Shown here one piece after another: positions 30,501 to 52,615 of a DNA stretch of 64,000 nucleotides; position 1 is the first letter of the stretch; every line of letters starts with the position of its first letter. Origin of the DNA: Balaenoptera acutorostrata (lineage: Eukaryota > Chordata > Mammalia > Artiodactyla > Balaenopteridae); the NCBI RefSeq assembly GCF_949987535.1, contig NC_080067.1, positions 47,366,910-47,430,909 on the forward strand, written 5' to 3'. The notes below the pieces were generated by a model. That model made no database searches. It had not been told where the DNA came from and saw nothing but the letters and a program-made list of their open reading frames with translations. Position numbers and translations under genes: made by a program.

Positions 30501-30961
30501 AATATTACTTATTCATATATTTTATGTTTACTGATAATTTTGAATTTATTATTACTACCATATGTTTTTGTCTATCTTTTTTTTTTAACATCTTTATTGG
30601 AGTATTGGAGGATAATTGCTTTACAATGGTGTGTTACTTTCTGCTTTATAACAAAGTGAATCAGTTATACATATACATATATTCCCATATCTCTTCCCTC
30701 TTGCATCTCCCTCCCTCCCACCCTCCCTATCCCACCCCTCTGGGTGGTCATAAAGCACAGAGCTGATCTCCCTGTGCTATGCGGCTGCTTCCCACTAGCT
30801 ATCTATTTTACGTTTGGTAGTGTATATATGTCCATGCCTCTCTCTCACTTTGCCACAGCTTACCCTTCCCCCTCCACCTATCCTCAAGTCCGTTCTCTAG
30901 TAGGTCTGTGTCTTTATTCCCGTCTTGCCACTAGGTTCTTCATGACCTTTTTTTTTTTTTC

Positions 30962-33900
30962 TTAGATTCCATGTATATGTGTTAGCATATTGTATTTGTT
31001 TTCCTCTTTCTGACTTACTTCACTCTGTATGACAGACTCTAACTCCATCCACCTCACTACAAATAACGCCATTTCGTTTCTTTTTATGGCTGAGTAATAT
31101 TCCATTGTATATATGTGCCACATCTTCTTTATCCATTCATCTGTTGATGGACACATAGGTTGCTTCCATGTCCTGGCTATTGTAAATAGAGTTGCAATGA
31201 ACATTTTGGTACATGACTCTTTTTGAATTACGGTTTTCTCAGGGTATATGCCAAGTAGTGGGATTGCTGGGTCGTATGGTAGTTCTACTTTTAGTTTTTT
31301 AAGGAACCTCCATATTGTTCTCCATAGTGGCTGTATCAATTTACATTCCCACCAACAGTGCAAGAGGGTTCCCTTTCCTCCACACCCTCTCCAGCATTTA
31401 TTGTTTGCAGATTTTTTGATGATGGCCATTCTGACTGGTGTGAGGAGATACCTTAATATAGTTTTGATTTCCATTTCTCTAATGATTAGTGATGTTGAGC
31501 GTTCTTTCATGTGTTTGTTGGCAATCTGTATATCTTCTTTGGAGAATGTCTATTTAGGTCTTCTGCCCATTTTTGGATTGGGTGGTTTGTTTTTTTGTTA
31601 TTGAGCTGCATGAGCTGCTTGTAAATCTTGGAGATTAATCCTTTGTCAGTTGCTTCATTTGCAAATATTTTCTCCCATTCTGAGGGTTGTCTTTTGGTCT
31701 TGTTTATGGTTTCCTTTGCTGTGCAAAAGCTTTTAAGTTTCATTAGGTCCTATTTGTTTATTTTTGTTTTTATTTCCATTTCTCTAGGAGCTGGGTCAAA
31801 AAGGATCTTGCTGTGATTTATGTCATAGAGTGTTCTGCCTATGTTTTCCTCTAAGAGTTTGATAGTGTCTGGCCTTACATTTAGGTCTTTAATCCATTTT
31901 GAGTTTATTTTTGTGTATGGTGTTAGGGAGTGTTCTAATTTCATACTTTTACATGTACCTGTCCAGTTTTCCCAGCACCACTTATTGAAGAGGCTGTCTT
32001 TTCTCCACTGTATATGCTTGCCTCCTTTATCAAAGATAAGCTGAACATATGTGAGTGGGTTTATCTCTGGGCTTTCTATCCTGTTCCATTGATCTGTATT
32101 TCTGTTTTTGTGCCAGTACCACACTGTCTTGACTACTGTAGCTCTGTAGTATAGTCTGAAGTGAGGGAGCCTGACCCCTTCAGCTCCATGTTTCGTTCTC
32201 AAGATTGCTTTGGCTATCCGGGGTCTTCCGTGTTTCCATACAAACTGTGAAACCTTTTGCCCTAGTTCTGTGAAAAATGCCAGTGGTAGTTTGATAGGGA
32301 TTGCATTGAATCTGTAGATTGCTTTGGGTAGTAGAGTCATTTTCACAATGTTGATTCTTCCAATCCAAGAACGTGGTATATCTCTCCATCTGTTTGTATC
32401 ATCTTTAATTTCTTTCATCAGTGTCTTATAATTTTCTGCATACAGGTCTTTTGACTCCTTAGGTAGGTTTATTCCTAGATATTTTATTCTTTTTGTTGCA
32501 ATGGTAAAAGGGAGTGTTTTCTTAATTTCACTTTCAGATTTTTCATCATTAGTGTATAAGAATGTAAGAGATTTCTGTGCATTAATTTTGTATCCTGCTA
32601 CTTTACAAATTCATTGATTAGCTCTAGTAGTTTTCTGGTAGCATATTTAGGATTCTCTATGTATAGTATCATGTCATCTGCAAACAGTGGCAGCTTTACT
32701 TCTTCTTTTCCGATTTGGATTCCTTTTATTTCTTTTTCTTCTCTGATTGCTGTGGCTAACACTTCCAGAACTATGTTGAATAATAGTGGTGAGAGTGGGC
32801 AACCTTGTCTTGTTCCTGATCTTAGTGGAAATGGTTTCAGTTTTTCACCACTGAGGATGATGTTGGCTATGGGTTTGTCATATATGACCTTTATTATGTT
32901 GAAGAAAGTTCCCTCTATGCCTACTTTCTGCAGGGCTTTTATCATAAATGGGTGTTGAAGTTTGTCAAAAGCTTTCTCTGCATCTATTGAGATGATCATA
33001 TGGTTTTTCTCCTTCAATTTTTTAATATGGTGTATCACATTGATTGATTTGCATATATTGAAGAATCCTTGCATTCCTGGGATAAACCCCACTTGATCAT
33101 GGTGTATGATCCTTTTAATATGCTGTTGGATTCTGTTTGCTAGTATTTTCTTGAGGTTTTTTGCATCTATGTTCATCAGTGATATTGGCCTGTAGTTTTC
33201 TTTCTTTGTGACATCTTTGTCTGGTTTTGGTATCAGGGTGATGGTGGCCTCGTAGAATGAGTTTGGGAGTGTTCCTCCCTCTGCAATATTTTGGAAGAGT
33301 TTGAGAAGGATAGGTGTTAGCTCTTCTCTAAATGTTTGATAGAATTCGCCTGTGAAGCCATCTGGTCCTGGGCTTTTGTTTGTTGGAAGGTTTTTAATCA
33401 CAGTTTCAATTTCAGTGCTTGTGATTGGTCTGTTCATATTTTCTATTTCTTCCTGGTTCAGTCTCGGCAGGTTGTGCATTTCTAAGAATCTGTCCATTTC
33501 TTCCAGGTTGTCCATTTTATTGGCATAGAGTTGCTTGTAGTAATCTCTCATGATCGTTTGTATTTCTGCAGTGTCAGTGGTTACTTCTCCTTTTTCATTT
33601 CTAAGTCTATTGATTTGAGTCTTCTCCCTTTTTTTCTTGATGAGTCTGGCTAATGGTTTATCAATTTTGTTTATCTTCTCAAAGAACTAGCTTTTAGTTT
33701 TATTGATCTTTGCTTTTGTCTCCTTCATTTCTTTTTCATTTATTTCTGACCTGATCTTTATGATTTCTTTCCTTCTGCTAACTTTGGATTTTTTTGTTCT
33801 TCTTTCTCTAATTGCTTTAGGTGCAAGGTTAGGTTGTTTATTCGAGATGTTTCCTGTTTCTTGATGTAGGCTTGTATTGCTATAAACTTCCCTCTTAGCA

Positions 33901-34776
33901 CTGCTTTTGCTGCGTCCCATAGGTTTTGGGTCGTTGTGTCTCCATTGTCATTTGTTTCTAGGTATTTTTTGATTTCCCCTTTGATTTCTTCAGTGATCAC
34001 TTCGTTATTAAGTAGTGTATTGTGTAGCCTCCATGTGTTTGTATTTTTTACAGATCTTTTCCTGTAATTGATATCTAGTCTCATAGAGTTGTAGTCAGAA
34101 AAGATACTTTATACGATTTCAATTTTCTTAAATTTACCAAGGCTTGATTTGTGACCCAAGATATGATCTATCCTGGAGAATGTTCCATAAGCACTTGAGA
34201 AAAATGTGTATTCTGTTGTTTTTGGGTGGAATGTCCTATAAATATCAATTAAGTCTGTCTTGTTTAATGTATCATTTAAAGCTTGTGTTTCCTTATTTAG
34301 TTTCATTTTGGATGATCTGTCCATTGGTGAAAGTGGGGTGTTAAAGTCCCCTACTATGATTGTGTTACTGTCGATTTCCCCTTTTATGGCTGTTAGTATT
34401 TGCCTTATGTTTTGAGGTGCCCCTGGTTGGGTGCATAAATATTTACAATTGTTATACCTTCTTCTTGGATTGATCCCTTGATCAGTATATAGTGTCCTTC
34501 TTTGTCTCTTGTAATAATCTTTATTTTAAAGTCTATTTTGTCTGATATGAGTATAGCTACTCCAGCTTTCTTTTGATTTCCATTTGCATGGAATATCTTT
34601 TTCCATCCCCTCACTTTCAGTCTGTATGTGTCCCTAGGTCTGAAGTGGGTCTCTTGTAGACAGCATATATATGGGTGTTGTTTTTGTATCCATTTAGCCA
34701 GTCTGTGTCTTTTGGTGGGAGCATTCAATGCATTTACATTTAAGGTAATTTTCAATATGTATGTTCCTATTCCCAT
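30962..34776 (-). pseudogene. ORF2: L1 ORF2 (endonuclease-reverse transcriptase), broken
   Basis: The start (MGIGTYI...) and stop correspond to the open ORF2 at 45583-49401, but the span is 3815 bp against 3819. The net loss of four bases is explained by four single-base deletions that I see by comparison: near 34425 (endonuclease domain), 33787, 32605 (just after the RT catalytic region) and 31545. Three in-frame stops are also present: TAA at 34109-34111, TAG at 33687-33689 and TAG at 31750-31752 (the last two are Trp codons in the open copy). The longest surviving piece, 32598-33551, still holds the FADD catalytic motif ('[15 protein letters not shown]'). The C-terminal cysteine/histidine knuckle is in 30962-31510. 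No active enzyme can be made. Confidence 0.95.
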
Positions 34777-34834
34777 TTTCTTAAATGTTTTGGGTTTGTT
34801 ATTGTAGGTGTTTTCCTTCTCTTGTGTTTCTTGC

Positions 34835-35728
34835 CTAGAGAAGTTCCTTTAGCATTTGTTGTAAAGCTGGTTTTGTGGTGCTGAACTCTCTCAACTTTTG
34901 CTTGTCTGTAAAGGTTTTAATTTCTCCATCAAATCTGAATGAGATCCTTGCTGGGTAGATTAATCTTGGTTGTAGGTTTTTCTCCTTCATCACTTTAAGT
35001 ATATCCTGCCACTCCCTTCTGGCTTGCAGAGTTTCTGCTGAAAGATCAGCTGTTAACCTTATGGGGATTCCCTTGTGTGTTATTTGTTGTTTTTCCCTTG
35101 CTGCTTTTAATATGTTTTCTTTATATTTAATTTTTGATAGTTTGATTAATATGTGTCTTGGCATGTTTCTTCTTGGATTTATCCTGTATGGGACTCTCTG
35201 TGCTTCCAGGACTTGATTAACTATTTCCTTTCCCATATTAGGGAAGTTTTCAACTATAATCTCTTCAAATATTTTCTCAGTCCCTTTCTTTTTCTCTTCT
35301 TCTTCTGGGACCCCTATAATTCGAATATTGGTGTGTTTAATGTTGTCCCAGAGGTCTCTGAGACTGTCCTCAGTTCTTTTCATTCTTTTTTCTTTATTCT
35401 GCTCTGCAGTAGTTATTTCCACTATTTTATCTTCCAGGTCACTTATCCGTTCTTCTGCCTCAGTTTTTCTGCTATTGATCCCTTCTAGAGTATTTTTAAT
35501 TTCATTTATCGTGTTGTTTATCGTTGCTTTGTTCCTCTTTAGTTCTTCTACGTCCTTGTTAAATGTTTCTTGCATTTTGTCTATTCTATTTCCAAGATTT
35601 GGGATCATCTTTACTATCATTATTCTGAATTCTTTTTCAGGTAGACTGCCTATTTCCTCTTCATTTGTTAGGTCTGGTGTGTTTTTACCTTGCTCCTTCA
35701 TCTGCTGTGTGTTTTTCTGTCTTCTCAT
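34835..35728 (-). CDS. ORF1: L1 ORF1p, RNA-binding protein, open frame
   Basis: 297 aa, the same length as ORF1 of the intact L1 at 49460-50353 and nearly identical by eye. Layout: basic N-terminus, coiled coil about residues 35-125 (the trimerisation region in L1 ORF1p), RRM about 130-225 with RNP2-like '[11 protein letters not shown]' and '[16 protein letters not shown]', then the C-terminal domain to 'LQQMLKELL'. L1 ORF1p coats L1 RNA and acts as a chaperone in cytoplasmic RNPs. Here the frame has outlived its partner ORF2, which is broken, so the element cannot move by itself. ORF1 ends 58 bp before the ORF2 start, as in the intact copy. Whether it is still transcribed is not visible. Confidence 0.9.
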   Translation of the reverse strand: MRRQKNTQQMKEQGKNTPDLTNEEEIGSLPEKEFRIMIVKMIPNLGNRIDKMQETFNKDVEELKRNKATINNTINEIKNTLEGINSRKTEAEERISDLEDKIVEITTAEQNKEKRMKRTEDSLRDLWDNIKHTNIRIIGVPEEEEKKKGTEKIFEEIIVENFPNMGKEIVNQVLEAQRVPYRINPRRNMPRHILIKLSKIKYKENILKAAREKQQITHKGIPIRLTADLSAETLQARREWQDILKVMKEKNLQPRLIYPARISFRFDGEIKTFTDKQKLREFSTTKPALQQMLKELL

Positions 35729-37910
35729 TTTGCTTATCTTACTGTGTTTGGGGTCTCCTTTTCACAGGCTGCAGGTTCGTAGTTCCCGTTGTTTTTGGTA
35801 TCTGTCCCCAGTGGCTAAGGTTGGTTCAGTGGGTTGTGTAGGCTTCCTGGTGGAGGGGATTAGTGCCTGTGTTCTGGTGGATGAGGCTGGATCTTGTCTT
35901 TCTCGTGGGCAGGACTGTGTCCAGTGGTGTGTTTTGGGGGGTCTGTGACCTTATTATGATTTTAGGCAGCTTCTGTGCTAGTGGGTGGGGTTGTTTTCCT
36001 GTCTTGCTAGTTGTTTGGCATAGGGTGTCCAGCACTGTAGCTTGCTGGTCTGTGAATGGAGCTGGGTCTTAATGTTGAGATGGAGATCTCTGGGAGAGCT
36101 TTTGCCATTTGATACTATGTGGGCCTGGGAGGTCTCTGGTGGACCAATGTCCTGAATTCGGCTCTCCCATCTCAGAGGCTCAGGCCTGACAGCTGCCCGG
36201 AGCACCAAGACCCTGTCAGCCACTTGGCTCAGAAGAAAAGAGAGAAAAAATAAAAGACAGAAAGAAAGAAAAAAATAAAATAAAATAAAAGTTTTTAAAA
36301 TAAAATTTAAAAAAATATTAAAAATAAAAAAATAAAAAATTCATTAAAAAAGAAGAAAGAATAGCTCAACTAAAGCAAAAAACAAATCCACCAATGATAA
36401 CAAGCACTAAAAACTATAGTTAAAAAAAAAAGAAAAAATGGACAGACAGAACCATAGGACAAATGTTAAAAGCAAAGCTATACAGAGAAAATCACACAGA
36501 GAAGCATACACATACACACTCAGAAAAATCGAAAAAGGAAAAAAAAGAAAAAAATATATATATATTTTTTAAAAAAGGAGGAGAGCAACCATCTCAATAA
36601 ACAGGTCTACCAATGATAATAATCTCTAAATACTAAACTAAGATAAACATAAAACCAGAAACAAATTAGATGCAGAAAGCAAACTCCAAGTCTACATTTA
36701 CTCCCAAAGTCCACCACCTCAATTTTGGTATGATTCGTTGTCTATTCAGGTATTCCACACATGCAGGGTACATCAAGTTGATTCTGGAGATTTAATCCAC
36801 TGCTCCTGAGGCTGCTGGGAGAAATTTCCCTTTCTCTTGTTTGTTTGCACAGCTCCTGGGGTTCAGCTTTGGAATTAGCCCTGCCTTTGCGTGTAGGTCA
36901 CCTGAGGGCGTCTGTTCTTTGCCCAGACGGGGGGAGAGGTTAAAGTAGCAGCTGATTAGGGGGCTCTGGCTCACTTAGGCCAGGGGGAGGGAGGGGTACA
37001 TAATGCAGGGTGAGCCTGTGGCAGCAGAGGCTGGCATGATGTTGAAACAGCCTGAGGCGTGCCGTGTGTTCTCCTGGGGAAGTTGTCCCTGGATCACGGG
37101 ACCCTGGCAGTGGCAGGCTGCAGAGGCTCCCAGGAGGGGAGGTGTAGCTAGTGACCTGTGCTTGCACACAGGATTCTTGGTGGCTGCAGCAGCAGCCTTA
37201 GCGTCTCATGCCAGTCTCTGGTGTCTGCACTGATAGCCACGGCTCATGCTTATTTCTGGAGCTTGTTTAGGCGGTGCTCTGTATCCCCTCTCCTCTTGCA
37301 CCCCAAAACAATGGTCTCTTGCCTCTTAGGCAGTTCCAGACTTTTTCCCGGACTCCCTCCCAGCTAGCTGTGGTGCACTAGCCCCTTCAGGCTGTGTTCA
37401 TGCAGCCAACCCCAGTCCTCTCCCTGCGATCCGACCGAAGCCCGAGCCTCAGCTCCCAGCCCCCGCCCGCCCCGGCGGGTGAGCAGACAAGCCTCTCAGG
37501 CTGGTGAGTGCTGGTCAACACCAGTCCTCTGTGCGAGAATCTCTCCACTTTGCCCTCTGCACCCCTGTTGCTGCACTCTCCTCTGTGGCTCCGAAGCTTC
37601 CCCCCTGCCCACCCCCTGTCTTCGCCAGTGAATGGCCAGGGCTTCCTAGAGTGTGGAAACTTTTTCTCATTCACAGTTCCCTCCTAGAGGTGCAGGTCCC
37701 GTCCCTATTCTTTTGTCTCTGATTTTTCTTTTTTCTTTTGTCCTACCCAGGTACATGGGGAGTTTCTTGACTTGGGAAGTCTAAGGTCTTCTGCCAGCAT
37801 TCAGTAGGTGTTCTGTAGAAGCTGTTCCACATGTAGATGTATTTTTGATGTATTTGTGGTGAGGAAGATGATCTCCACATCTTACTCCTCCGTCATCTTG
37901 AAGGTCCCTC
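35729..37910 (-). promoter_or_regulatory. 5'UTR/promoter region of the older L1
   Basis: About 2.2 kb. It contains an A-rich tract (36232-36700 on the plus strand), much longer than the matching 50856-51010 tract in the intact L1, then the GC-rich part 36830-37720. That part holds only one copy of the roughly 366-bp unit that is duplicated in the intact L1. Many CpGs are decayed to TG/CA. Confidence 0.75.
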
Positions 37911-45173: not shown

Positions 45174-45186
45174 TCGAGTAGGTTCT
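45174..45186 (+). repeat. L1 target-site duplication, left copy
   Basis: 'tcgagtaggttct', identical to 52603-52615. The last T cannot be told apart from the A-tail. Confidence 0.95.
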
Positions 45187-45582
45187 TTTTTTTTTTTTTT
45201 TTTCAAACATCTTTATTGAAGTATAATTGCCTTACAATAGTGTGTTAGCATCTGCTTTATAACAAAGTGAATCTGTTATACATATACAATATGTTCCCAT
45301 TTCTCTTCCCTCTTGCATCTCCCTCCCTCCCACCCTCCCCATCCCACCCCTCTAGGTGGTCACAAAGCACCGAGCTGATCTCCCTGTGCTATGTGGCTGC
45401 TTCCCACTAGCTATCTATTTTACATTTGGTAGTGTATATATGTCCATGACACTCTCTTACCCTGTCACATCTCACCCCACCCCCTCCCCATATCCTCAAG
45501 TCCATTCTCTAGTAGGTCTGTGTCTTTATTCCCGTCTTGCCACTAGGTTCTTCATGGCCTTTTTTTTGTTTTGTTTTTTCCC
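45187..45582 (-). terminator. L1 3'UTR with polyadenylation signal
   Basis: Sense AATAAA (plus-strand tttatt at 45212-45217) shortly before the A-tail. A G-rich tract in sense (plus 'ctccctccctcccaccctccccatcccacccc' around 45320-45351) is the polypurine/G-rich motif commonly found in L1 3'UTRs. Confidence 0.85.
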
Positions 45583-48500
45583 TTAGATTCCATATATATG
45601 TGTTAGCATACTGTATTTGTTTTTCTCTTTCTGACTTACTTCACTCTGTATGACAGACTCTAACTCCATCCACCTCATTACAAATACCTCCATTTCATTT
45701 CTTTTTATGGCTGAGTAATATTCCATTGTATATATGTGCCACATCTTCTTTATCCATTCATCTGTCGATGGACATTTAGGTTGCTTCCATGTCCTGGCTA
45801 TTGTAAATAGAGCTGCAATGAACATTTTGGTACATGACTCTTTTTGACCTATGGTTTTCTCAGGGTATATGCCCAGTAGTGGGATTGCTGGGTCGTATGG
45901 TAGTTCTATTTGTAGTTTTTTAAGGAACCTCCATACTGTTCTCCATAGTGGCTGTATCAATTTACATTCCCACCAACAGTGCAAGAGTGTTCCCTTTCCT
46001 CCACACCCTCTCCAGCATTTATTGTTTCTAGATTTTTTGATGATGGCCATTCTGACCGGTGTGAGATGATATCTCATTGTAGTTTTGATTTGCATTTCTC
46101 TAATGATTAATGATGTTGAGCATTCTTTCATGTGTCTGTAGGCCATCTGTATATCTTCTTTGGAGAAATGTCTATTTAGATCTTCTGCCCATTTTTGGAT
46201 TGGGTTGTTTGTTTTTTTGTTATTGAGCTGCATGAGCTGCTTGTAAATCTTGGAGATTAATCCTTTGTCAGTTGCTTCATTTGCAAATATTTTCTCCCAT
46301 TCTGAGGGTTGTCTTTTGGTCTTGTTTATGGTTTCCTTTGCTGTGCAAAAGCTTTTCAGTTTCATTAGGTCCCATTTGTTTATTTGTGTTCTTATTTCCA
46401 TTTCTCTGGGAGCTGGGTCAGAAAGAATCTTGCTGTGATGTATGTCATAGAGTGTTCTGCCTATGTTTTCCTCTAAGAGTTTGATAGTGTCTGCCCTTAC
46501 ACTTAGGTCTTTAATCCATTTTGAGTTTATTTTTGTGCATGGTGTCAGGGAGTGTTCTAATTTCATACTTTTACATGTTCCTGTCCAATTTTCCCAGCAC
46601 CACTTATTGAAGAGGCTGTCTTTTCTCCACTGTATATGCTTGCCTCCTTTATCAAAGATAAGTTGACCATATGTGTGTGGGTTTATCTCTGGGCTTTCTA
46701 TCCTGTTCCATTGATCTATATTTCTGTTTTTGTGCCAATACCAAACTGTCTTGATTACTGAAGCTTTGTAATATAGTCTGAAGTCAGGGAGCCTGATTCC
46801 CCCAGCTCCATTTTTCGTTCTCAAGATTGCTTTGGCTATTCGGGGTCTTTTGTGTTTCCATACAAATTGTGAAATTTTTTGTTCTAGTTCTGTGAAAAAT
46901 GCCAGTGGTAGTTTGATAGGGATTGCATTGAATCTGTAGATTGCTTTGGGTAGTAGAGACATTTTCACAATGTTGATTCTTCCAATCCAGGAACATGGTA
47001 TATCTCTCCATCTATTTGTATCATCTTTAATTTCTTTCATCAGTGTCTTATAATTTTCTGCATACAGGTCTTTTGTCTCCTTAGGTAGGTTTATTCCTAG
47101 ATATTTTATTCTTTTTGTTGCAGTGGTAAATGGGAGTGTTTTCTTAATTTCACTTTCAGATTTTTCGTCATTAGTGTATAGAAATGCAAGAGATTTCTGT
47201 GCATTAATTTTGTATCCTGCTACTTTACCAAATTCATTGATTAGCTCTAGGAGTTTTCTGGTAGCATCTTTAGGATTCTCTATGTATAGTATCATGTCAT
47301 CTGCAAATAGTGACAGCTTTACTTCTTCTTTTCCGATTTGGATTCCTTTTATTTCTTTGTCTTCTCTGATTGCTGTGGCTAGGACTTCCAGAACTATGTT
47401 GAATAATAGTGGTGAGAGTGGGCAACCTTGTCTTGTTCCTGATCTTAGTGGAAATGGTTTCAGTTTTTCACCATTGAGGACAATGTTGGCTGTGGGTTTG
47501 TCATATATGGCCTTTATTATGTTGAGGAAAGTTCCCTCTATGCCTACTTTCTGCAGGGCTTTTATCATAAATGGGTGTTGAATTTTGTCAAAAGCTTTCT
47601 CTGCATCTATTGAGATGATCATATGGTTTTTCTCCTTCAATTTGTTAATATGGTGTATCACATTGATTGATTTGCGTATATTGAAGAATCCTTGCATTCC
47701 TGGGATAAACCCCACTTGATCATGGTGTATGATCCTTTTAATGTGCTGTTGGATTCTGTTTGCTAGTATTTTGTTGAGGATTTTTGCATCTATGTTCATC
47801 AGTGATATTGGCCTGTAGTTTTCTTTCTTTGTGACATCTTTGTCTGGTTTTGGTATCAGGGTGATGGTGGCCTCGTAGAATGAGTTTGGGAGTGTTCCTC
47901 CCTCTGCAATATTTTGGAAGAGTTTGAGAAGGATAGGTGTTAGCTCTTCTCTAAATGTTTGATAGAATTCGCCTGTGAAGCCATCTGGTCCTGGGCTTTT
48001 GTTTGTTGGAAGGTTTTTAATCACAGTTTCAATTTCAGTGCTTGTGATTGGTCTGTTCATATTTTCTATTTCTTCCTGGTTCAGTCTCGGCAGTTTGTGC
48101 ATTTCTAAGAATCTGTCCATTTCTTCCAGGTTGTCCATTTTATTGGCATATAGTTGCTTGTAGTAATCTCTCATGATCTTTTGTATTTCTGCAGTGTCAG
48201 TGGTTACTTCTCCTTTTTCATTTCTAATTCTATTGATCTGAGTCTTCTCCCTTTTTCTATTGATGAGTCTGGCTAATGGTTTATCAATTTTGTTTATCTT
48301 CTCAAAGAACCAGCTTTTAGTTTCATTGATTTTTGCTATTGTTTCCTTCATTTCTTTTTCATTTATTTCTGACCTGATCTTTATAATTTCTTTCCTTCTG
48401 CTGGCTTTGGGGTTTTTTTGTTCTTCTTTCTCTAATTGCTTTAGGTGCAAGGTTAGGTTGTTTATTCGAGATGTTTCCTGTTTCTTGAGGTAGGCTTGTA

Positions 48501-49401
48501 TTGCTATAAACTTCCCTCTTAGCACTGCTTTTGCTGTGTCCCATAGGTTTTGGGTCGTCGTGTCTCCATTGTCATTTGTTTCTAGGTATTTTTTGATTTC
48601 CCCTTTGATTTCTTCAGTAATCACTTCGTTATTAAGTAATGTATTGTGTAGCCTCCATGTGTTTGTATTTTTTACAGATCTTTTCCTGTAATTGATATCT
48701 AGTCTCATAGCGTTGTGGTCGGAAAAGATACTTGATACGATTTCAATTTTCTTAAATTTACCAAGGCTTGATTTGTGACCCAAGATATGATCTATCCTGG
48801 AGAATGTTCCATGAGCACTTGAGAAAAATGTGTATTCTGTTGTTTTTGGGTGGAATGTCCTATAAATATCAATTAAATCCATCTTGTTTAATGTATCATT
48901 TAAAGCTTGTGTTTCCTTATTTATTTTCATTTTGGATGATCTGTCCATTGGTGAAAGTGGGGTGTTAAAGTCCCCTACTATGATTGTGTTGCTGTCAATT
49001 TCCCCTTTCATGGCTGTTAGTATTTGCCTTATGTATTGAGGTGCTCCTATGTTGGGTGCATAAATATTTACAATTGTTATACCTTCCTCTTGGATCGATC
49101 CCTTGATCATTATATAGTGTCCTTCTTTGTCTCTTGTAATAGTCTTTATTTTAAAGTCTATTTTGTCTGATATGAGAATTGCTACTCCAGCTTTCTTTTG
49201 ATTTCCATTTGCATGGAATATCTTTTTCCATCCCCTCACTTTCAGTCTGTATGTGTCCCTAGGTCTGAAGTGGGTCTCTTGTAGACAGCATATGTATGGG
49301 TCTTGTTTTTGTATCCATTCAGCCAGCCTGTGTCTTTTGGTGGGAGCATTTAATCCATTTACATTCAAGGTAATTATCGATATGTATGTTCCTATTCCCA
49401 T
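45583..49401 (-). CDS. ORF2: L1 ORF2p, endonuclease and reverse transcriptase
   Basis: 1272 aa, close to the 1275 of human L1 ORF2p. It nicks genomic DNA and reverse-transcribes L1 RNA from the nick, in the nucleus. The apurinic-type endonuclease spans residues 1-235: N13 ('LNVNG'), E42 ('QETHF'), D144/N146 ('VGDFN'), D204 ('[10 protein letters not shown]') and D228/H229 ('FSDHN') are present. In the RT domain (about 450-770) D599 ('SIDAEKAFD') and D701/D702 in 'LFADDMILY' are present, with '[12 protein letters not shown]' before them. The C-terminus has the C-x3-C...H...C knuckle '[18 protein letters not shown]'. All catalytic residues I can check are intact, with no stop or frameshift. The start MGIGTYI lies 58 bp after ORF1, as expected for translation by reinitiation. 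Activity is inferred, not shown. Confidence 0.97.
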
Positions 49402-49459
49402 TTTCTTAAATGTATTGGGTTTGTTATTGTAGGTGTTTTCCTTCTCTTGTGTTTCTTGC

Positions 49460-50353
49460 CTAGAGAATTTCCTTTAGCATTTGTTGTAAAGCTGGTTTGG
49501 TGGTGCTGAACTCTCTCAGCTTTTGCTTGTCTGTAAAGGTTTTAATTTCTCCATCGAATCTGAATGAGATCCTTGCTGGGTAGAGTAATCTTGGTTGTAG
49601 GTTTTTCTCCTTCATGACTTTAAGTATATCCTGCCACTCCTTTCTGGCTTGCAGAGTTTCTGCTGAGAGATCAGATGTTAACCTTATGGGGATTCCCTTG
49701 TGTGTTATTTGTTTTTTTTCCCTTGCTGCCTTTAATATGTTTTCCTTATATTTAATTTTTGACAGTTTGATTAATATGTGTCTTGGCGTGTTCCTCCTTG
49801 GGTTTATCCTGTATGGGACTCTCTGTGCTTCCAGGACTTGATTAACTATTTCCTTTCCCATATTAGGGAAGTTTTCAACTATAATCTCTTCAAAAATTTT
49901 CTCAGTCCCTTTCTTTTTCTCTTCTTCTTCTGGTACCCCTATAATTCGAATGTTGGCACGTTTAATGTTGTCCCAGAGGTCCCTGAGACTGTCCTCAGTT
50001 CTTTTCATTCTTTTTTCTTTATCCTGCTCTGTAGTAGTTATTTCCACCATTTTATCTTCCAGGTCACTTATCCTTTCTTCTGCCTCAGTTATTCTACTAT
50101 TGATCCCATCTAGAGTATTTTTAATTTCATTTATTGTGTTTTTCATCATTGCTTGGTTCCTCTTTAGTTCTTCTACATCCTTGTTAAATGTTTCTTGCAT
50201 TTTGTCTATTCTATTTCCAAGATTTTGGATCATCCTTACTATCATTATTCTGAATTCTTTTTCAGGTAGACTACCTATTTCCTCTTCATTTGTTAAGTCC
50301 AGTGTGTTTTGAGCCTGCTCCTTCATCTGCTGTGTGTTTTTCTGTCGTCTCAT
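49460..50353 (-). CDS. ORF1: L1 ORF1p, RNA-binding trimeric protein
   Basis: 297 aa (human ORF1p has 338; the N-terminal coiled coil is the usual place of length change). Binds L1 RNA in cis and forms the cytoplasmic RNP with ORF2p. Residues 1-30 are basic/polar. Heptad-rich coiled coil about 35-125 ('[20 protein letters not shown]', '[20 protein letters not shown]'). RRM about 130-225 with RNP2-like '[11 protein letters not shown]' (134-144) and '[16 protein letters not shown]' (192-207). C-terminal domain to 297 with '[20 protein letters not shown]'. The start is the first ATG of the frame (MRRQKNTQQ), and the old L1 uses the same one. It is uninterrupted. Nothing else of this size is coded in the 5'UTR that precedes it. 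Confidence 0.96.
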
Positions 50354-51540
50354 TTTGCCTATCTTACTGTGTTTGGGGTCTCCTTTTCACAGGCTGCAGG
50401 TTCGTAGTTCCCGTTGTTTTTGGTATCTGTCCCCAGCGGCTAAGGTTGGTTCAGTGGGTTGTGTAGGCTTCCTGGTGGAGGGAACTAGTGCCTGAGTTCT
50501 GGTGGATGAGGCTGGATCTTGTCTTTCTGGTGGGCACGTCCACGTCTGGTGGTGTATTTTGTGGTGTCTGTGGCCTTATTATGATTTTAGGCAGCCTCTC
50601 TGCCAATGGATGGGGTTGTGTTCCTGTCTAGCTAGTTGTTTGGCATAGGATGTCCAGCACTGTAGCTTGCTGGTCGTTGAGTGAAGCTGGGTCTTGATGT
50701 TGAGATGGAGATCTCTGGGAGATTTTTGCCGTTTGGTATTACGTGGAGCTGGGAGGTCTCTTGTGGACCAGTGTTCTGAAGTTGGCTCTCCCACCTCAGA
50801 GGCACGGCCCTGATGCCTGGCTGGAGCACCAAGAGCCTTTCGTCCACACGGCTCAGAGTAAAAGGGAGAAAAAATAGAAAGAAAGAAAGAAAGAGGCTAT
50901 AATATAGTGAAGTAAAATAAAGCTATTGTAAAGCAAAGCTATACAGACAAAATCTCACCCAGAAGCATATACATATACACTCACTAAAAAAAGGAAAAGG
51001 GGAAAAATTAATATCTCCTGCTCCCAGAGTCCACCTCCTGAATTTGGGATGATTCGTTGTCTATTCAGGTATTCCACAGATGCAGGTACATCAAGTTGTC
51101 TGTGGAGCTTTAATCCGCTGCTCCCGAGGCTGCTGGGAGAGATTTCCCCTTCTCTTCCCTGTTCGCACAGCTCCTGGGGTTCAGCTTTGGATTTGGACCC
51201 GCCTCTGCGTGTAGGTCGCCTGAGGGCGTCTGTTCCCCGCCCAGACAGGACGGGGTTAAAGGAGCAGCTGCTTCGGGGTCTCTGGCTCACCCAGGCCGCG
51301 GGGAGGGAGGGGTACGGAGGAGGCGGGGCGAGCCTGCGGCGTCAGAGGCCGGCGTGACGTTGCACCAGCCTGAGGCGCGCAGTGCGTTCTCCCGGGGATG
51401 TTGTCCCCGGATCCCGGGACCCTGGCAGTGACGGGCTGCACAGGCTCCCGGGAGGGTTGGTGTGGAGAGTGACCTGTGCTCGCACACAGGCTTTTTGGAG
51501 GCGGCAGCAGCAGCCCCAGCGTCTCACGCCCGTCTCTGGG

Positions 51541-51906
51541 GTCCGCGCTGATCGCCGTGGCTTGCGCCCTTCTCTGGAGTTCGTTTAGGCGGCGCTCTGA
51601 ATCCCCTCTCCTTGCGCGCCGCGAAACTAAGAGGCAAGAAAAAGTCTCTTGCCTCTTCGGCAGCTGCAGACCTTTTCCTGGTCTCCCTCCCGGCTAGCTG
51701 TGGTGCGCCAACCCCTTCAGGCTGTGTTCACGCCGCCAGCCCCAGTCCTCTCCCTGCGATCCGACCGCAGCCCGAGCCTCAGCTCCCAGCCCCGCCCGCC
51801 CCGGCGGGGGAGCAGACAAGCCTCTCGGGCTGGTGAGCGCCGCTCGGCGCCGAGCCTCTGTGCGGGAGTCTCTCCGATTTTCCCTCTGCGCCCCTGTTGC
51901 TGTGGG
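51541..51906 (-). repeat. Tandem promoter unit, copy 1
   Basis: About 366 bp from 'tccgcgctgatcgccg' to 'cccctgttgctgtggg'. It holds GC boxes and a hairpin (51629-51657). Offset to copy 2 is 366-367 bp throughout. Confidence 0.93.
51629..51657. repeat. 11-bp hairpin in unit 1
   Basis: Arms 'aagaggcaaga' (51629-51639) and 'tcttgcctctt' (51647-51657) with a 7-nt loop. The same hairpin is at 51995-52023 in unit 2. Confidence 0.9.
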
Positions 51907-52272
51907 ATCCGCGCTGATAGCCGCGGCTCGCGCCCTTCTCTGGAGTTCGTTTAGGCGGCGCTCTGAATCCCCTCTCCTTGCCCGCCGCGAAACAAAGAGG
52001 CAAGAAAAAGTCTCTTGCCTCTTCGGCAGCTGCAGACTTTTTCCCCGGACTCCCTCCCGGCTAGCTGTGGTGCGCTAACCCCTTCAGGCTGTGTTCACGC
52101 TGCCAGCCCCAGTCCTCTCCCTGCGATCCGACCGCAGCCCGAGCCTCAGCTCCCAGCCCCGCCCACCCCGGGCGGGTGAGCAGACAAGCCTCTCGGGCTG
52201 GTGAGTGCTGCTCGGCGCCGAGCCTCTGTGCGGGAACCTCTCCGCTTTGCCCTCCGCACCTCTGTGGCTGCG
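51907..52272 (-). repeat. Tandem promoter unit, copy 2
   Basis: Starts 'atccgcgctgatagccg' and ends near 'cacctctgtggctg'. By eye it differs from copy 1 at roughly two dozen positions. The right flank ('gcgctctcctccgtggct') matches the flank of the single unit in the older L1. Confidence 0.93.
51995..52023. repeat. 11-bp hairpin in unit 2
   Basis: Identical arms and loop to the unit 1 hairpin, 366 bp further on. The older L1 has only 'tctcttgcctctta' at this place, without the left arm. Confidence 0.9.
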
Positions 52273-52581
52273 CTCTCCTCCGTGGCTCTGAAGCTTCCCC
52301 CCTCCGCCCCCCGCAGTCTCCGCCCGCGAAGGGGCTCCTAGTGCGTGGAAACCTTTCCTCCTTCACGGCTCCCTCCCACTGGTGCAGGTGCCGTCCCTAT
52401 TCTTTTGTCTCTGTTATTTCTTTTTTCTTTTGCCCTACCCAAGTACGGGGGGAGTTTCTTGCCTTTTTGGAGGTCGGACGTTTTCTGCCAGCATTCAGTG
52501 GGTGTTCTGTAGGAGCAGTTCCACGTGTAGGTGTATTTCTACTGTATCTGTGGGAAGGAATGTGATCTCCGCGTCTTACTC

Positions 52582-52595
52582 TTCCGCCATCTTCC
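52582..52595 (-). promoter_or_regulatory. YY1-like site at L1 5' end
   Basis: In sense GGAAGATGGCGGAA, which contains AAGATGGCGG, the core of known YY1 sites that position the start in human L1. It lies within 21 bp of the element start. Confidence 0.75.
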
Positions 52596-52602
52596 CTCCC
52601 TC

Positions 52603-52615
52603 TCGAGTAGGTTCT
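52603..52615 (+). repeat. L1 target-site duplication, right copy
   Basis: 'tcgagtaggttct', identical to 45174-45186. Confidence 0.95.

What the first reader, a model, noticed from the sequence alone, without database searches (positions are those of the whole stretch)
51541..52272. Tandem duplication of a 366-bp promoter unit in the intact L1
The GC-rich 5'UTR core occurs twice at a constant offset of 366-367 bp. The older L1 at 30576-37910, collinear otherwise, has one unit (about 37211-37570) with the same flanks. This resembles the start of monomer-based promoter growth as known in mouse L1 (about 200-bp monomers), but in a non-rodent lineage and with a larger unit. The two units differ by roughly two dozen bases, so the duplication predates this insertion and has probably been passed on by an active lineage.
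Basis: seen in the sequence. Interest (0 to 1): 0.8.

Follow-up and report, generated by a model that had tools for sequence, protein, structure and literature searches.

The report
Duplicated promoter block in whale L1
A jumping gene (LINE-1) in this whale or dolphin genome carries two copies of a 366-base control block where an older relative carries one, and the same duplication turns up in other copies, so this control region has grown by repetition, something already known from mouse, horse and elephant.

Summary
The L1 at 45187-52602 (minus strand; ORF1 and ORF2 open; 13/13 target-site duplication) holds a tandem 366-368 bp duplication at 51534-52271, with 24 mismatches in 369 aligned bases. 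The older L1 has one unit, 37216-37573. ORF1p places the host in Cetacea.

No host genome could be searched, so I searched antisense translations of the region against predicted proteins. Of 152 relatives retrieved, 27 contain the unit-unit junction (2 complete from flank to flank, 1 with at least three units), 74 have one unit and 51 are uninformative. A mark beside the junction (F/S or FF) is in 24 of 27 junction ends and 0 of 72 one-unit ends. So the duplication is shared and most likely arose once and was inherited by replication. Multi-unit copies are not one clean clade (p-AU 0.044).

Tandem L1 promoters outside rodents are already published (horse and rhinoceros; also elephant, hyrax, opossum). 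The difference here is an internal array behind a unique 331-bp 5' cap with a YY1-like site. Any effect on promoter strength is inferred.

The parts
45187..52602 (-). Full-length L1 carrying the duplication (7416 bp with 17-base poly(A))
52603..52615 (.). Target-site duplication next to the 5' end; 13/13 identical to 45174-45186
45174..45186 (.). Target-site duplication next to the poly(A) tail
52272..52602 (-). Unique 5' cap, 331 bp, upstream of the array; boundary approximate by a few bases
52584..52593 (-). YY1-like site AAGATGGCGG at element nt 10-19
   Evidence: motif name recalled
51903..52271 (-). Distal (5') unit, GC 0.66, CpG o/e 0.79
51534..51902 (-). Proximal (ORF1-side) unit, GC 0.67, CpG o/e 0.84
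51885..51920 (.). Region of the unit-unit junction whose antisense translation (CAPVAVGSALI) recurs in relatives
50354..51533 (-). Unique 1180-bp stretch between array and ORF1 (tether-like)
49460..50353 (-). ORF1, 297 aa, open
45583..49401 (-). ORF2, 1272 aa, open; endonuclease and reverse transcriptase domains
37216..37573 (-). Single unit of the older L1

Best explanation
An internal, GC- and CpG-rich 366-bp segment of a cetacean L1 5'UTR was joined head to tail to a second copy, most likely once, in an ancestor of many copies, and the multi-unit form was then inherited through retrotransposition. Shown: the duplication; the same junction in other copies; one, two and at least three units among relatives; a mark beside the junction that one-unit copies lack. 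Inferred: some descendants fell back to one unit, or exchanged units, through recombination between near-identical blocks. Also inferred: transcription starts at the YY1-like site in the unique cap and the units act as promoter or enhancer blocks (GC boxes and a RUNX-like core in each), so that a second block raises or buffers output.
For: Duplication. Junction in 27 of 152 retrieved clusters; one search prints 27 junctions from 26 of them with the same join (VAVGSALI or CCCGIRADS, by frame), and P0134 was read by eye. Complete two-unit forms P0241 and P0250, at least three units in P0151. Mark before the junction: 24 of 27 junction ends against 0 of 72 one-unit ends. Older than the insertion: 13/13 target-site duplication; probability of no stop in the ORFs 0.018 or 0.0017 if the differences had arisen after insertion. 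Candidate sites and CpG content per unit.
Against: Multi-unit rows are marginally rejected as one clade (p-AU 0.044), which fits single origin only with later loss or exchange. The mark is absent or partial in 3 of 27 junction ends (LS, LC, LF), and LF and LS each also occur in one one-unit end. P0186 and P0241 change frame a few residues before the junction. No promoter activity was measured. The relatives are antisense translations from mostly unnamed contigs.
Confidence: 0.7

Rival explanations
1. The two-unit promoter arose by exchange or template switching between two one-unit L1 subfamilies rather than by duplication of one unit; in the window copy the units were later made alike.
For: In P0121, P0123, P0125, P0126 and P0127 the proximal unit is of one type (A-R-x-E-T-K/R-x-Q or close to it) and the post-junction unit of another (AHQETKREEK).
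Against: The window copy, P0186, P0194 and P0210 have an R-type post-junction unit (P0194 and P0210 were mislabelled there as proximal). Only about 85 residues of antisense translation were compared.
Confidence: 0.2
2. The array is real and inherited but passive: a by-product of recombination with no effect on transcription.
For: One-unit relatives are more numerous than multi-unit ones in what was retrieved (74 against 27 of 152), so two units are not required. No activity data exist here.
Against: Both units keep high CpG o/e and candidate sites. In mouse L1spa two monomers are reported as the minimum for activity (PMC9022269, passage), though that unit is unrelated.
Confidence: 0.3
3. The same segment was duplicated several times independently at a preferred breakpoint.
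For: Multi-unit rows scatter on the tree.
Against: The join is the same in the junctions printed, and the mark beside it is shared.
Confidence: 0.06
4. Assembly artefact in this window.
For: No reads were available; TRF did not report the array.
Against: The units differ at 24 sites and the junction recurs in 27 other clusters.
Confidence: 0.02

Closest known systems
Horse and rhinoceros L1 5'UTR types 1 and 3 (PMC5872511)
   Same: Tandem repeats in a GC-rich non-rodent L1 5'UTR; in type 1 the number of repeats is 2 or 3, lost and regained between families (section 10).
   Different: Unit length and position in the 5'UTR are not given in what I read; homology was not tested, because the consensus sequences are in supplements that could not be read here.
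Mouse L1 5'UTR monomers (A, Tf, Gf)
   Same: Tandem units with a number that varies between copies, and a unique stretch between array and ORF1 (PMC9022269, passages).
Human L1 5'UTR
   Same: YY1-like site at the extreme 5' end (nt 10 here; nt 9-20 in human, PMC11602158, passage).
   Different: Human L1 has no tandem units (PMC9022269, passage: mouse differs from human in this).
Giraffe L1-1_Gir, L1-1A_Gir, L1-1B_Gir (PMC8620236)
   Same: A related artiodactyl L1 with versions that differ in the 5'UTR while the rest is 99.7% alike (passage).
   Different: [quoted passage not shown] whether they are repeat units is not said in the passage, and no sequence was available.

Membership tests
LINE-1 (L1), full length | ORF1 with L1 RNA-binding domains and ORF2 with endonuclease and reverse transcriptase | tested here: met
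LINE-1 (L1), full length | Target-site duplication, poly(A) tail, 5'UTR reaching the 5' end | tested here: met
L1 with tandemly repeated 5'UTR | Two or more head-to-tail units in the 5'UTR | tested here: met
L1 with tandemly repeated 5'UTR | Unit number varies between copies | tested here: met
   74 with one, 27 with two or more (1 of them at least three) of 152 clusters; from translations, not DNA
Mouse-type monomeric promoter | Array forms the 5' end of the element | tested here: not met
   331-bp unique cap upstream of the array
Mouse-type monomeric promoter | YY1 motif within the unit (mouse Tf) | tested here: not met
   AAGATGG only at nt 10, in the cap; exact core searched
Mouse-type monomeric promoter | Each unit has promoter activity | not testable with these tools
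   needs reporter assays
Horse L1 type 1 5'UTR | Sequence homology of the units | not tested

The most novel reading that the evidence does not exclude
Cetacean L1s use an internal-array promoter: a fixed YY1 cap sets the start site while 366-bp blocks downstream of it are gained, lost and exchanged between subfamilies, so promoter strength evolves by block number without moving the start site, unlike mouse arrays.
Probability: 0.3. Interest if true: 0.65.

Novelty: new variant of a known kind. Interest (0 to 1): 0.45.

Why it matters
It adds whales and dolphins to the mammals whose L1 promoters grow by repetition. It offers a family in which copies with one, two and at least three units exist side by side behind the same cap, so the effect of unit number can be measured directly. 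It also bears on L1 activity in cetaceans, which one paper lists among lineages where L1 is apparently extinct (PMC5872511, passage) while another infers recent activity (PMC6657726, passage).

Tried and rejected
The genome search on the window's own genome did not complete in 9 tries, so units per genomic copy could not be counted. ORF1p in genome contigs and viral contigs gave no confirmed relative (67 and 13 stretches matched a pattern, none confirmed), and an exact 23-mer of the unit gave none. TRF missed the array. A classification by loose peptide patterns confused the proximal flank with the junction and was discarded. The alignment-based one was used with hand corrections: P0249 moved from multi to one; P0170, P0179, P0189, P0202, P0243, P0246, P0247 and P0254 from undecided to one; P0134 from undecided to multi. 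P0202, P0149 and P0186 were left out of the tree because of reading frame. In one search P0194 and P0210 were labelled proximal by the script; they are post-junction.

Considered and rejected: the old L1 as a deletion chimera of a two-unit parent (its matches to the two units are interspersed); a link to the common cetacean satellite, described as similar to the L1 3' end (PMC9659126, passage). Not pursued: whether any antisense frame is coding; in the window the flank-unit frame stops at 51697. Rfam gave no match. The hairpin regions fold no better than shuffles as a whole (z -1.51 and -0.78).

Full report
What is there. The L1 lies on the minus strand at 45187-52602 (7416 bp). It has a 13-base target-site duplication identical on both sides (45174-45186 and 52603-52615), a poly(A) tail and open ORF1 (297 aa) and ORF2 (1272 aa) with the expected Pfam domains. 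Its 5'UTR of 2249 bp consists of a unique cap (331 bp), a distal unit (369 bp), a proximal unit (369 bp) and 1180 bp up to ORF1.

The duplication. The two units align over 371 bp at 93.0%, with spacings of 366, 367 and 368. MAFFT counts 24 mismatches in 369 aligned bases, 8 of them CpG transitions. The older L1 has one unit, which differs from the distal unit at 51 of 359 and from the proximal unit at 56 of 357 aligned bases. Where the two units differ by substitution, the old copy matches the distal unit 14 times, the proximal unit 8 times and neither twice, interspersed along the unit; gap columns go 1, 2 and 1 (all). It is therefore not a chimera left by deletion between the units. Three sequences cannot be rooted, so they alone do not order the duplication and the split of old and young.

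Host. ORF1p is 90% identical to a protein of false killer whale and 88% to proteins of pilot whale and vaquita; goat and musk deer proteins are at 69-72% (best 120 of 6648 listed). The host is therefore a cetacean; the species is not known.

Other copies. The host genome could not be searched. The units are GC-rich and often open on the strand antisense to the L1, so gene callers have predicted 'proteins' there in contigs that hold cetacean DNA. That these contigs are cetacean is inferred from likeness; one hit is named gray whale (P0155). A junction-spanning translation (window 51698-52075) found 242 proteins at E up to 1, of which 120 are listed. A second search used residues 1-128 of P0121, which end before the junction so that the junction itself did not score; it found 274 at E up to 0.001, of which 120 are listed. 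The union is 152. Each was aligned to proximal flank, unit and distal flank and classified, with the hand corrections told in Tried and rejected.

Counts. One unit with both flanks: 74 of 152. Two or more units: 27 of 152; 17 are anchored in the proximal flank, and 2 of those (P0241, P0250) run through to the distal flank. One of the 27 (P0151) has two junctions, hence at least three units. Uninformative: 51 of 152. In the second search alone: 72 one-unit, 15 anchored multi-unit (the query P0121 included), 7 other multi-unit and 26 uninformative, of 120. These are 90%-identity clusters, ranked by likeness to a two-unit query and limited in length. They are not genomic frequencies. P0151 is a single contig and could be mis-assembled.

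One origin. One search prints 27 junctions from 26 proteins, with the same join in either frame (VAVGSALI or CCCGIRADS). P0186 and P0241 change frame a few residues before it, and P0194 and P0210 have an extra stretch of about 40 bases just after it. P0134 was read by eye. The unit end just before the junction reads F, S or FF in 24 of 27 junction ends; the other three read LS, LC and LF. Of 72 one-unit ends scored, 62 read LC or A by pattern and 6 more read LC by eye; one each reads PC, LF and LS, and one is unclear. None reads FF, and none F or S in the other frame. The window copy shows the same contrast between its two units (S before the junction, LC before the cap), and the old L1 reads A. 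One duplication inherited by replication explains this best.

Not one clade. A tree of the proximal flank and the first part of the unit (90 rows, window copies included; 105 columns; 63 of 87 inner branches unresolved) needs 12 changes of the label, against a shuffled mean of 15.0 (7 of 500 shuffles as low). Holding the 16 multi-unit rows together is marginally rejected (p-AU 0.044). With a single junction this implies losses of a unit or exchange between copies. Unit types that go with position in P0121, P0123, P0125, P0126 and P0127 leave an origin by exchange between subfamilies open.

Age. If the unit differences had arisen after insertion, the ORFs would rarely have stayed free of stops: probability 0.018 at the non-CpG rate and 0.0017 at the full rate (3000 simulations each, substitutions only). 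Together with the clean target-site duplication and the shared mark, this puts the duplication before this insertion.

How it may work (inferred). The cap has a YY1-like site at nt 10, as human L1 has at nt 9-20 (PMC11602158, passage). GC-box cores lie at nt 428 and 439 in the distal unit and at 802 and 806 in the proximal one, others in cap and tether; a RUNX-like core is at 532 and 899, and at 2038 in the tether. CpG o/e is 0.79 and 0.84 in the units. Motif names are recalled, and short cores occur by chance. The likely picture is a fixed start site in the cap with doubled activator blocks behind it. In mouse, two monomers are reported as the minimum for L1spa activity (PMC9022269, passage), and Tf monomers act together through YY1 (PMC11602158, passages); there the YY1 motif is in the monomer, here it is in the cap.

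What is known. Tandem repeats in horse and rhinoceros L1 5'UTRs are published; in type 1 the number is 2 or 3, with loss and regain (PMC5872511, section 10 read). [quoted passage not shown] My nine paper searches listed no paper whose title or abstract start describes tandem units in cetacean L1 5'UTRs. Most subscription journals, and repeat databases, were not searched.

Verdict. A real, shared, internal tandem duplication in a cetacean L1 promoter region: a new variant of a known kind. Its function is untested.

Noticed in passing
51629-51657 and 51995-52023; 51842-51855 and 52210-52223: Each unit holds a near-perfect inverted repeat (AAGAGGCAAGA...TCTTGCCTCTT) and a 14-base palindrome (GCTCGGCGCCGAGC). 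The old L1 lacks one arm of the first.
   Followed up: partly
relatives P0161, P0194, P0209, P0210: The first 40 or so bases of the unit appear twice in a row in these copies, which suggests a second, smaller slippage point at the unit start.
   Followed up: no
45187-52602: An L1 with both ORFs open and a clean target-site duplication in a cetacean, although a paper lists cetaceans among lineages where L1 is apparently extinct (PMC5872511, passage).
   Followed up: no
30577-37910 against 45194-52602: The old and young L1 are 94.2% identical over the stretch that holds the ORFs but only 81-84% in the 5'UTR. The old 5'UTR has lost many CpGs (unit: 12 against 31 and 34), which may explain part of it.
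   Followed up: partly
36359-36700: The old L1 5'UTR has about 340 bp here where the young one has about 24; part of it repeats the neighbouring 140 bp, beside an A-rich tract.
   Followed up: no
protein P0004: A protein filed under a Delftia metagenome-assembled genome is 87% identical to this L1 ORF1p: probably cetacean DNA in a bacterial bin.
   Followed up: no
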